In this document: piece by piece, positions 3,065 to 45,771 of the stretch
Layout: every line of letters begins with the position of its first letter
How positions within the stretch are numbered: position 1 is the first letter of the stretch
NCBI RefSeq assembly: GCF_019038415.1
Contig: NZ_JAFKRG010000048.1
Span: 62,001 to 126,000 of the forward strand
Reading direction: 5' to 3'
DNA: 64,000 nucleotides
From: Synechococcus sp. CCY 9618
Lineage (GTDB): Bacteria; Cyanobacteriota; Cyanobacteriia; PCC-6307; Cyanobiaceae
Notes under the pieces: model-generated
The model's input: the letters and a program-made list of their open reading frames with translations, nothing else
Databases searched by the model: none
Told to the model about the DNA's origin: nothing
Translations under genes and position numbers: made by a program

Positions 3065-3647
3065 GAAAATTCCTCGAATTGGGGCGGGGTGATCACGAAT
3101 GGACGAAAAGCTGATGGACTGATTGACGTGTTGGCAATCAGGGCTGGCATATCTCAGGACATAAAACGTCAACTCAATGCTTGTGGGCTGAACTGCTCGA
3201 CTATTCTTTGATTCTTCTTTGATTCTTCTTTGATTCTTCGTCCTCTTCTCTCACCTGACGAGCCCAGTTCTCTGGTCAATCTAGAGGTTGGCCAATCTTG
3301 AGGTTGGAGTCACAACAGCAGATAACTCTTTAATCATCATCTTGTTCCGGCCCAGGCGCCGTCGCGTGTGCATCGTTTTCACATAATGGAACATGGGCAG
3401 ATTGGGAGTTGTTCCTCTCTGCCTCGGAGCACCCCCAGGAGAACGCTGCCGAGCGGTGTTCCGCCAGGATGCGATGGGTGGCCGGGGGAGGAGTCTTCCG
3501 GCGTATCCCCAGGTCAGTCCCGTCACCGTGGCGACCACGGGGGTGTCGGAGAACCGATCATGTTCCGCTCCCGTGAAGAACACGTCGCCGATGGCAAGGC
3601 GCGCCGAGCCACGCTGCCACGCGATGCCCATGGCGTGTGGGCGGCCC
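3065..3647. other. Low-GC intergenic stretch, no secure gene
   Basis: This holds the likely promoter region of the small secreted protein, the 11-bp tandem repeat at 3207-3239 and, on the minus strand, an open frame of about 117 codons (ATG at 3631, stop at 3281). The first 50 residues of that frame look protein-like (LAIGDVFFTGAEHD) but match no family I know. Its position directly after the cofG remnant suggests another gene fragment. Confidence 0.4.
3207..3239 (+). repeat. Three tandem copies of an 11-bp unit
   Basis: TTTGATTCTTC is repeated exactly at 3207-3217, 3218-3228 and 3229-3239, with a partial copy just upstream. It lies in AT-rich non-coding DNA. Copy number is likely to vary between strains by slippage. 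Confidence 0.85.
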
Positions 3648-3881
3648 CTAACCACCGGCAGCCAGGCCCTGAGCCATGGCCTCGGCGCGATGGCGCAGCG
3701 GGCTGGGCAGCCAGGGGATCCAGGCCGGGTGAACGCACAGGCGGGGGCGGAGCTCCCAGCCAGCTCCCGCCAGGAGCGACGCCAGAGCGTCGGGCCTGGG
3801 CTGGGGGTAGGCGGGATTGATCACATCCTCGCTATCGAGGCCGCCCAGGTCATCGATCCCGGCCTCGATCGCCTCCGGCAG
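3648..3881 (-). pseudogene. cofG: 3' fragment of cofG (FO synthase subunit 1)
   Basis: Reading the minus strand from 3881 gives about 77 residues to a TAG at 3648: LPEAIEAGIDDLGG, then LDSEDVINPAYPQPRPDAL, then a helical tail. This matches the C-terminal end of CofG, the radical SAM enzyme that helps make the deazaflavin FO (photolyase and F420 chromophore), including the GIDDLGG and NP.YPQP motifs. The catalytic N-terminal part with the CxxxCxxC cluster is absent. The fragment is joined, in another frame, to the truncated nuclease gene, as if a deletion fused two unrelated genes. Confidence 0.75.
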
Positions 3882-42823: not shown

Positions 42824-43624
42824 TCAGCCCTTGGCACCGGCGTTGATCTGGGCCACGGCCCGCATGGCGGCGGCGGCCGCCTCCTCCACGTCGCCCTCCT
42901 TGCCGGCCAGGGTGAGGCGACCGAAGGCCCCCACGGCCTTGACGTCCACCACGGTGATGTTGGAGCTCTTCTCGGCCTCGTTGGCGGCGATCAGCACATA
43001 ACCCGCCGGTTCGGTCTCGAGGATGAACATGCTCATGCCGGCCTGGATCATCGAACCGCGGCGGTTCTGGCGGTTGATCAGCACCGCATGATCAGGGGTG
43101 ATCGCCCGGATGATCTCGGTCCAGGTGACCTCGCAGCGGCTGCGAAGCTCCACCCGGCTGCCGATGGCCTCCAGCACCACGTCGCCGGAGTGGAGCACAT
43201 TGCTCTGGTCGCGGTGGTAGAGGGCCAGGGAGCCGAAGGCCCGCTCCACCACCATCTGGCCGAGCCGCACCGTGCTGGCCTTGAGGGCGATGTCCGTGAC
43301 CCGGTGCACGGCCATGCCCGGCGACACCTCCAGCCAGAGGCAGGCATCGCCGGGAATGGGCAGGAAGCCATGGGACACCGTGCCCATGTACGAGGCCAGC
43401 TGGGGCTGGAGGGAATCGAGGAAGACGTAGGTGCGCAGCTCGATCGACTGAACCTGGCTGGACTGGCGGGCCAGGCGGCGTCCTTCGCTGTCGGTGGTGA
43501 TGACGCAGCTGGCGCCGGAACTCTCACCACTCACGTCGGTGCCGGTGATGCGCAGGCCCGCAGCCCTCCGGCGCGCGTCCGACCGGTCGTCGCGAAGGAA
43601 AGAGCGGGTGGGCTGCGAATCCAT
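42824..43624 (-). CDS. csoS1D: Carboxysome tandem-BMC shell protein CsoS1D
   Basis: 266 residues from the ATG at 43624. About 55 N-terminal residues are flexible. Two BMC domains follow (about 57-155 and 160-260), with the conserved pore Glu-Arg in VVERAFG. It forms double-stacked trimers whose large pore can open or close, probably to gate RuBP and other metabolites. It is apart from the main operon, separated by sbtAB and the divergent rdgB. A much longer frame upstream is an artefact of high GC. Confidence 0.94.
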
Positions 43625-43832
43625 CACGGCGTCGTGCGCCACCTCCGGGAACGGACGATTCGTTGGATCACCGGTTGCGTGGGTTCCGCGGCGATCCCGA
43701 TCCACCGACGCCTGGGGCGGGGCAGAAACGGAGGGTACTCCCAACGGGGGCGGGCGGAGCGGCATGGTCCGCGGGCACTTGCGAGCTGGAAGCCAGCCGG
43801 TACCTTCCAGCTCAACCCTCGCAGGCGCGTTC

Positions 43833-44378
43833 ATGGCCACCCGGCGCACCGCCACAGCACCCTCCGCCAATGGATCCCCGGTCCCCGGATCCCCGGCCCA
43901 CGGATCTGGCTCCGAAGGTTCTTCCTCTGCGGGCAGCACGGCCGAAACCCAGCCCCTGCGCAACGCCCTCGACCAGGACACCTTTTCGGAGTGGATCGCC
44001 CGGGCGATCGACCAGGGTGTACGGCCGGAGCAGGCCCTCGCCTTCATCGGCCTCGGCCTGATGCGGAGGATGGGCAGTGTCGGCCTCGAGGATCTCAGGG
44101 ACGGGCAGGACGGTGGTGAGGCCGACAGCCCGGTTGATCTGGCCGGACTGCGCCAGCGGCTTGAGATCACCGATCTGGCCATCCGCACCAGTGCCCCCCT
44201 GAGCACCGCCGAGGTGACCCAGCTGATGGGGGCCCGGCCGGGCGCCCCGGTGGTGGAGCGCGGCGGGCTCACGGCCCGACGCCTGGCCCGCAACGTCTGG
44301 AAGCTCAGCCGCAGCTCCGACGAGGACCGCTCCGACCGCGGCCTGGGCTTCAGTGAGGGCTTCCGTCGCCGCCTCTGA
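43833..44378 (+). CDS. Uncharacterised protein with disordered N-terminus and helix-turn-helix-like C-terminus
   Basis: 181 residues from the ATG at 43833. Residues 1-42 are Ser/Gly/Pro/Thr-rich and probably disordered. A helical block (about 43-80, [20 protein letters not shown]) follows. Residues about 125-165 ([35 protein letters not shown]) look like a small winged helix-turn-helix of the excisionase/MerR kind. The start is divergent from csoS1D (208 bases) and 70 bases upstream of chlN on the same strand. A regulator or a carboxysome-associated factor would both fit; I know no characterised homologue. Confidence 0.65.

Positions 44379-44445: not shown

Positions 44446-45771
<1,326 letters not shown>

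What the first reader, a model, noticed from the sequence alone, without database searches (positions are those of the whole stretch)
43833..44378. Uncharacterised protein between carboxysome gene csoS1D and chlN
The protein has a disordered N-terminus, a helical middle and a C-terminal segment that reads like a winged helix-turn-helix ([23 protein letters not shown]). It sits at the divergent junction between carboxysome and chlorophyll genes, where a regulator of either set, or a carboxysome placement or assembly factor, could sit. I know of no described function.
Basis: inference. Interest (0 to 1): 0.6.

Follow-up and report, generated by a model that had tools for sequence, protein, structure and literature searches.

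The report
Carboxysome-linked degenerate winged-helix protein
Almost every picocyanobacterium that makes alpha-carboxysomes carries this small uncharacterised protein, always beside and back-to-back with the carboxysome shell gene csoS1D; it has a modified DNA-binding fold and a uniquely conserved promoter, so it is probably a local switch for carboxysome genes in a group with few known carbon regulators.

Summary
The ORF is real: 43833-44378 (+), 181 aa, with a start supported by orthologues. Orthologues occur in 342 of 400 Cyanobiaceae genomes (235 of 251 good-quality ones), including small Prochlorococcus-like genomes. No hit below E = 1e-3 appeared in about 255 other cyanobacterial genomes. 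It lies divergent from csoS1D in 104 of 104 loci where the contig reaches. chlN is adjacent in only about 60% and has moved away in all 14 such genomes tested, so the link is to the carboxysome gene.

No Pfam or NCBIfam model matches. The strongly basic core (residues 103-160) is homologous (hhalign probability 94-95%; reversed and shuffled controls below 1%) to the C-terminal winged-helix-like domain of a two-domain regulator-like family of beta-cyanobacteria. AlphaFold2 gives those relatives a recognition helix. In the picocyanobacterial family that helix is replaced by a short RPG-containing turn and strand.

Upstream is CTTGC-N15-CCGRTAMCKTCC with a fixed spacer (52 of 55 loci), 21-27 nt from ATG in most. 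Exact matches are almost unique per genome and missing where the gene is missing.

Best explanation (inferred): an autoregulated local transcription factor for csoS1D/cso genes. Main rival: a carboxysome-associated adaptor. DNA binding and function are not shown.

The parts
43833..44378 (+). the uncharacterised gene (181 aa plus stop)
43833..43973 (+). residues 1-47, low-complexity disordered N-tail, variable in length between orthologues
   Evidence: AlphaFold2 pLDDT about 43-56; alignment gaps
43974..44081 (+). residues 48-83, two helices including the conserved amphipathic helix [16 protein letters not shown] (residues 65-80)
44082..44138 (+). residues 84-102, acidic linker (family mean charge -4)
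44139..44312 (+). residues 103-160, basic core (family mean charge +6, pI 11.7): winged-helix derivative with the order helix-helix-strand-strand-strand
44358..44375 (+). conserved C-terminal motif GFRRRL (YWRN in Prochlorococcus-like members)
43778..43808 (+). conserved promoter/operator-like element CTTGC-N15-CGGTACCTTCC, about 25 nt upstream of the ATG
   Evidence: 52 of 55 loci, fixed spacer; nearly unique per genome
43625..43832 (.). 208-bp intergenic region between the divergent start codons of csoS1D and the gene
42824..43624 (-). csoS1D, the constant divergent neighbour (266 aa)
44449..45771 (+). chlN, the frequent but not constant downstream neighbour

Best explanation
A small, alpha-cyanobacteria-specific DNA-binding protein built on a modified winged helix, acting as a local transcription factor. 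It would bind the short csoS1D-ORF intergenic region, control its own promoter and adjust expression of csoS1D, perhaps with the rest of the cso cluster. The basic sheet/wing would contact DNA. The conserved amphipathic helix and C-terminal tail would mediate dimerisation or binding of RNA polymerase or a sensor. Shown here: the gene, its distribution, the invariant divergent pairing with csoS1D, the remote homology, the basic core and the conserved promoter. Inferred: DNA binding, autoregulation and csoS1D as the target.
For: Divergent pairing with csoS1D in 104/104 loci across about 30 genera, intergenic median 134 bp in the genus-diverse set. Conserved divergent pairs typically join a regulator with its target (general knowledge, not tested here). 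Core homologous to the C-terminal wHTH-like domain of a family that also carries an N-terminal HTH_17-like domain (probability 94.3, E 1.1e-7; reversed/shuffled controls 0.2-0.5; HTH_17 link of the relatives). Invariant basic residues R109, R143, R153 and R/K at 150; core charge +4 to +8 in all 55 members. Fixed-spacing upstream element with 82% pairwise identity against 29% in the flank; the exact element is close to single-copy per genome and absent where the gene is absent. Gene loss with csoS1D kept in several lineages fits a regulator better than an essential structural part.
Against: AlphaFold2 predicts no recognition helix; the segment is GARPG plus a strand. No Pfam/NCBIfam HTH model matches members of this family with significance, and Foldseek found no significant fold match. 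The conserved element could simply be a sigma-70-type core promoter (TTG ... TAnnnT, spacing 16). No inverted repeat typical of a dimer's operator is conserved. In about a dozen close relatives a 1.7-1.8-kb gene, or its decayed remnant, separates csoS1D from the gene, so one shared operator is not always possible.
Confidence: 0.47

Rival explanations
1. A carboxysome-associated adaptor or assembly factor: the winged-helix core has lost DNA binding and become a protein-binding module, while the amphipathic helix and the C-terminal FRRRL/YWRN motif dock onto shell or cargo proteins such as CsoS1D.
For: Missing recognition helix; conserved short motifs separated by disordered linkers; linkage to csoS1D only; restricted to the alpha-carboxysome-bearing family.
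Against: Strongly basic core; homologues are HTH proteins unlinked to carboxysomes; lost in lineages that keep csoS1D; no paper passage read here reports such a component (PMC4499774, PMC12918739).
Confidence: 0.25
2. A nucleic-acid-binding protein with another target: an RNA-binding or global nucleoid-type protein whose place beside csoS1D reflects history only.
For: Basic core; no strong operator symmetry; the exact upstream element is not found at cso or other promoters.
Against: The pairing with csoS1D survived in every lineage that keeps the gene while chlN moved.
Confidence: 0.15
3. A regulator of the downstream DPOR genes (chlN-chlB-chlL).
For: Co-directional with chlN and adjacent to it in 65 of 106 loci.
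Against: All 14 genomes tested where the two are separated keep chlN elsewhere, in several cases hundreds of kb away, while the gene stays beside csoS1D.
Confidence: 0.07

Closest known systems
Two-domain HTH family of beta-cyanobacteria (about 190 aa, N-terminal HTH_17-like plus C-terminal winged-helix-like domain; alignment A3), no established name found
   Same: C-terminal domain homologous over 58 columns, hhalign probability 94-95
   Different: The family here lacks the N-terminal HTH, has a shortened recognition segment and wing, has an amphipathic helix and tail motif instead, and is linked to csoS1D; the relatives are unlinked to carboxysome genes
Mobile-element-borne paralogues in Cyanobium-type genomes (L168, L169)
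   Same: Same core with the RPG/KPG turn
   Different: L169 has a different N-terminal region; both lie near tyrosine-recombinase-like genes (family call from sequence reading)
HTH_17 / excisionase / MerR-type HTH (PF12728, TIGR01764)
   Same: An L-T-x-x-E-x-x-x-L-L-G helix resembles HTH_17
   Different: Profile match covers only 12 columns, probability 9%
Ci regulators CmpR, NdhR (CcmR), RbcR, CyAbrB2
   Same: Comparable proposed role, control of carbon-fixation genes
   Different: Larger LysR-type or AbrB-type proteins (general knowledge); CmpR and CyAbrB2 are reported absent from alpha-cyanobacteria (PMC9477826)
McdB carboxysome-positioning protein
   Same: Disordered regions and a conserved C-terminal motif, by general resemblance only
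   Different: No McdA-like partner is adjacent; McdAB is reported absent from alpha-cyanobacteria (PMC8262871)

Membership tests
Winged helix-turn-helix superfamily | Significant sequence or profile homology to wHTH-type proteins | tested here: met
   hhalign with the beta-cyanobacterial C-terminal domain, probability 94-95, controls below 1; that domain is predicted as helix-strand-helix-helix-strand-strand-strand and hits many HTH models weakly
Winged helix-turn-helix superfamily | Recognition helix (third helix) present | tested here: not met
   Window-protein model has helices 103-119 and 125-132, then strands only
Winged helix-turn-helix superfamily | Significant fold match to solved wHTH structures | tested here: inconclusive
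   Foldseek: nothing significant for the window protein; for the relative's domain, wHTH regulators (Rex, MarR-type, HsmR, PapI) make up much of the top list, best E of any hit 0.3
DNA-binding transcription factor | Specific DNA binding and an effect on transcription | not testable with these tools
   needs EMSA/DAP-seq and expression data
HTH_17 / excisionase / MerR | Match to the family profile | tested here: not met
   hmmscan none for the window protein; best NCBIfam excise E 0.64 in one member; hhalign probability 9
McdB (carboxysome positioning) | Encoded next to a ParA-type McdA ATPase | tested here: not met
   Immediate neighbours are csoS1D and chlN; no ParA-like gene adjacent
Carboxysome shell protein (BMC or pentamer family) | BMC domain | tested here: not met
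   No significant Pfam match in any of 55 members

The most novel reading that the evidence does not exclude
A dedicated alpha-carboxysome regulator (or shell-coupled regulator) found only in picocyanobacteria, built on a winged helix that has replaced its recognition helix by a basic turn and sheet, reading DNA (or CsoS1D) in an undescribed way and controlling the shell-gate gene csoS1D through a promoter element used almost nowhere else in the genome.
Probability: 0.3. Interest if true: 0.78.

Novelty: new variant of a known kind. Interest (0 to 1): 0.55.

Why it matters
Prochlorococcus and its relatives carry out a large share of ocean carbon fixation with alpha-carboxysomes. They are reported to lack the carbon regulators CmpR and CyAbrB2 (PMC9477826) and the McdAB positioning system (PMC8262871), and the co-location of carboxysome and protochlorophyllide reductase genes is described as unexplained (PMC4207490). 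A near-universal, lineage-restricted protein invariably paired with csoS1D, with its own conserved promoter, is a specific and testable candidate for the missing local control or a missing carboxysome-associated factor.

Tried and rejected
Direct family searches found nothing usable: Pfam, NCBIfam and PHROGs scans, PDB sequence search and Foldseek on the whole model. HTH_17/excisionase membership was tested and not supported. Linkage to chlN as the defining context was rejected. A known structured RNA upstream was rejected. A genome-wide regulon sharing the upstream element was not found; one-mismatch hits occur at about the rate of the reversed-pattern control. The csoS1D side of the intergenic region carries a related GGTAnnnTCC element in marine and some Cyanobium loci, but the window's own csoS1D side has no match, so it was not used as main evidence. 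Searches for locus tags guessed from memory gave no papers.

Full report
The gene. Window 43833-44378 (+) encodes 181 aa. The start codon is supported by about 30 orthologues from the same genus. csoS1D lies upstream on the other strand with its start codon at 43624. chlN follows on the same strand.

Distribution. A profile of 16 orthologues finds the family in 342 of 400 Cyanobiaceae genomes, 235 of 251 good-quality ones and 49 of 59 genera, including 1.6-1.8-Mb genomes of Prochlorococcus type. In about 255 genomes from other families of the class nothing passes E = 1e-3. A scan of 84,980 species genomes returned only Cyanobium/Synechococcus-type and uncultured cyanobacterial records, although that scan relied on two peptide patterns and would miss distant relatives.

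Context. In 43 of 43 loci drawn from about 30 genera, and in 61 of 63 further loci (the other two end at a contig edge), the gene is the divergent neighbour of csoS1D. The median intergenic distance is 134 bp in the first set. chlN is adjacent and co-directional in 31 of 43 and 34 of 63. Fourteen good-quality genomes without adjacent chlN all keep chlN elsewhere, from about 5 kb to hundreds of kb away or on another contig. The stable partner is therefore csoS1D. In a few lineages (genomes of genera g31, g46, g48, g82) csoS1D remains but the gene is gone; in g46 and g82 csoS1D and chlN are then direct neighbours. So the protein is not strictly required where csoS1D is used.

Anatomy. AlphaFold2 with 55 sequences gives a disordered N-tail, helices 48-60 and 65-83, a disordered acidic linker, and a confident core with helices 103-119 and 125-132 and strands 140-143, 146-152 and 155-160. 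Invariant residues cluster in the core and in the helix PEQALxxIGLGLM. The C-terminus ends FRRRL, or YWRN in Prochlorococcus-like members. The core carries +4 to +8 net charge in every member, with R109, R143 and R153 invariant and position 150 always R or K.

Remote homology. No Pfam or NCBIfam model fits. Weak extra hits led to mobile-element-borne paralogues and to a 190-aa beta-cyanobacterial protein. The latter belongs to a family found in 36 of 145 cyanobacterial genomes, none of the listed hits in Cyanobiaceae. Its N-terminal domain is HTH_17-like. Its C-terminal domain aligns with the core here at probability 94-95 and E about 1e-7 to 3e-8, whereas reversed and shuffled versions give 0.2-0.5. 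AlphaFold2 models that C-terminal domain as a canonical winged helix with a recognition helix. Foldseek lists many wHTH regulators near the top, but none significantly. In the family here the recognition-helix segment is shortened to GARPGxxxxxRGG. The core is best described as a degenerate or modified winged helix: 'works like a wHTH' is plausible, but standard wHTH membership fails on the recognition helix. The 16 relatives whose surroundings were examined show no carboxysome genes nearby.

Upstream element. In 52 of 55 loci the sequence TTGC followed by a spacer of 15 (16 in one) and then CGRTA-like bases occurs, usually 21-27 nt before the ATG. The conserved positions show 82% mean pairwise identity, against 29% in the flank and in the spacer. 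In 30 genomes the full 30-nt pattern without mismatch occurs at this promoter and at one other place (in G082); one-mismatch hits are at the level of the reversed-pattern control. Three genomes without the gene have no exact copy. In the window it is 43778-43807. It can be read as a sigma-70-type promoter (TTG, 16 nt, TAnnnT) with extra conserved bases (CCGR before and CC after), which is what an autoregulatory operator overlapping a promoter would look like; a plain but unusually conserved promoter is not excluded. Rfam has no match.

Interpretation. Constant divergent pairing, HTH ancestry, a basic core and a private conserved promoter together favour an autoregulated local transcription factor for csoS1D and perhaps the cso cluster (confidence 0.47). 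The missing recognition helix and the short conserved motifs in disordered linkers keep a carboxysome-associated adaptor alive (0.25). Literature context: alpha-cyanobacteria are reported to lack CmpR and CyAbrB2 (PMC9477826) and McdAB (PMC8262871); the link of cso and chl genes is described as unexplained (PMC4207490). I found no paper describing this protein, within an open-access library only.

Noticed in passing
L054:4164-6002 (-), L056:4127-5836 (-), L059:4129-5913 (-): In close relatives of the window genome a 570-613-aa gene, read as a metallo-beta-lactamase-like domain plus GGDEF diguanylate cyclase (by eye, not scanned), sits between csoS1D and the gene; L058 and L061 hold apparently decayed remnants and the window lacks it.
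   Followed up: partly
L168 around 3600-3800 (-), L169:1033-1584 (-), L175: Second, divergent copies of the core domain; those in L168 and L169 lie near tyrosine-recombinase-like genes, suggesting that the domain also travels on mobile elements.
   Followed up: partly
L124-L159, upstream of csoS1D: In marine lineages the csoS1D start codon is only about 8-11 nt from a conserved CCGGTAnnATCC element that resembles the GGTAnnnTCC part of the gene's own promoter, suggesting a very short or absent 5' leader.
   Followed up: partly
L208-L237: A widespread beta-cyanobacterial family with an N-terminal HTH_17-like and a C-terminal winged-helix-like domain, with no significant Pfam or NCBIfam assignment for most members.
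   Followed up: partly
L160, L161 (genus g46), L162: Natural loss: csoS1D and chlN are direct divergent neighbours about 300-620 bp apart without the gene between them.
   Followed up: yes
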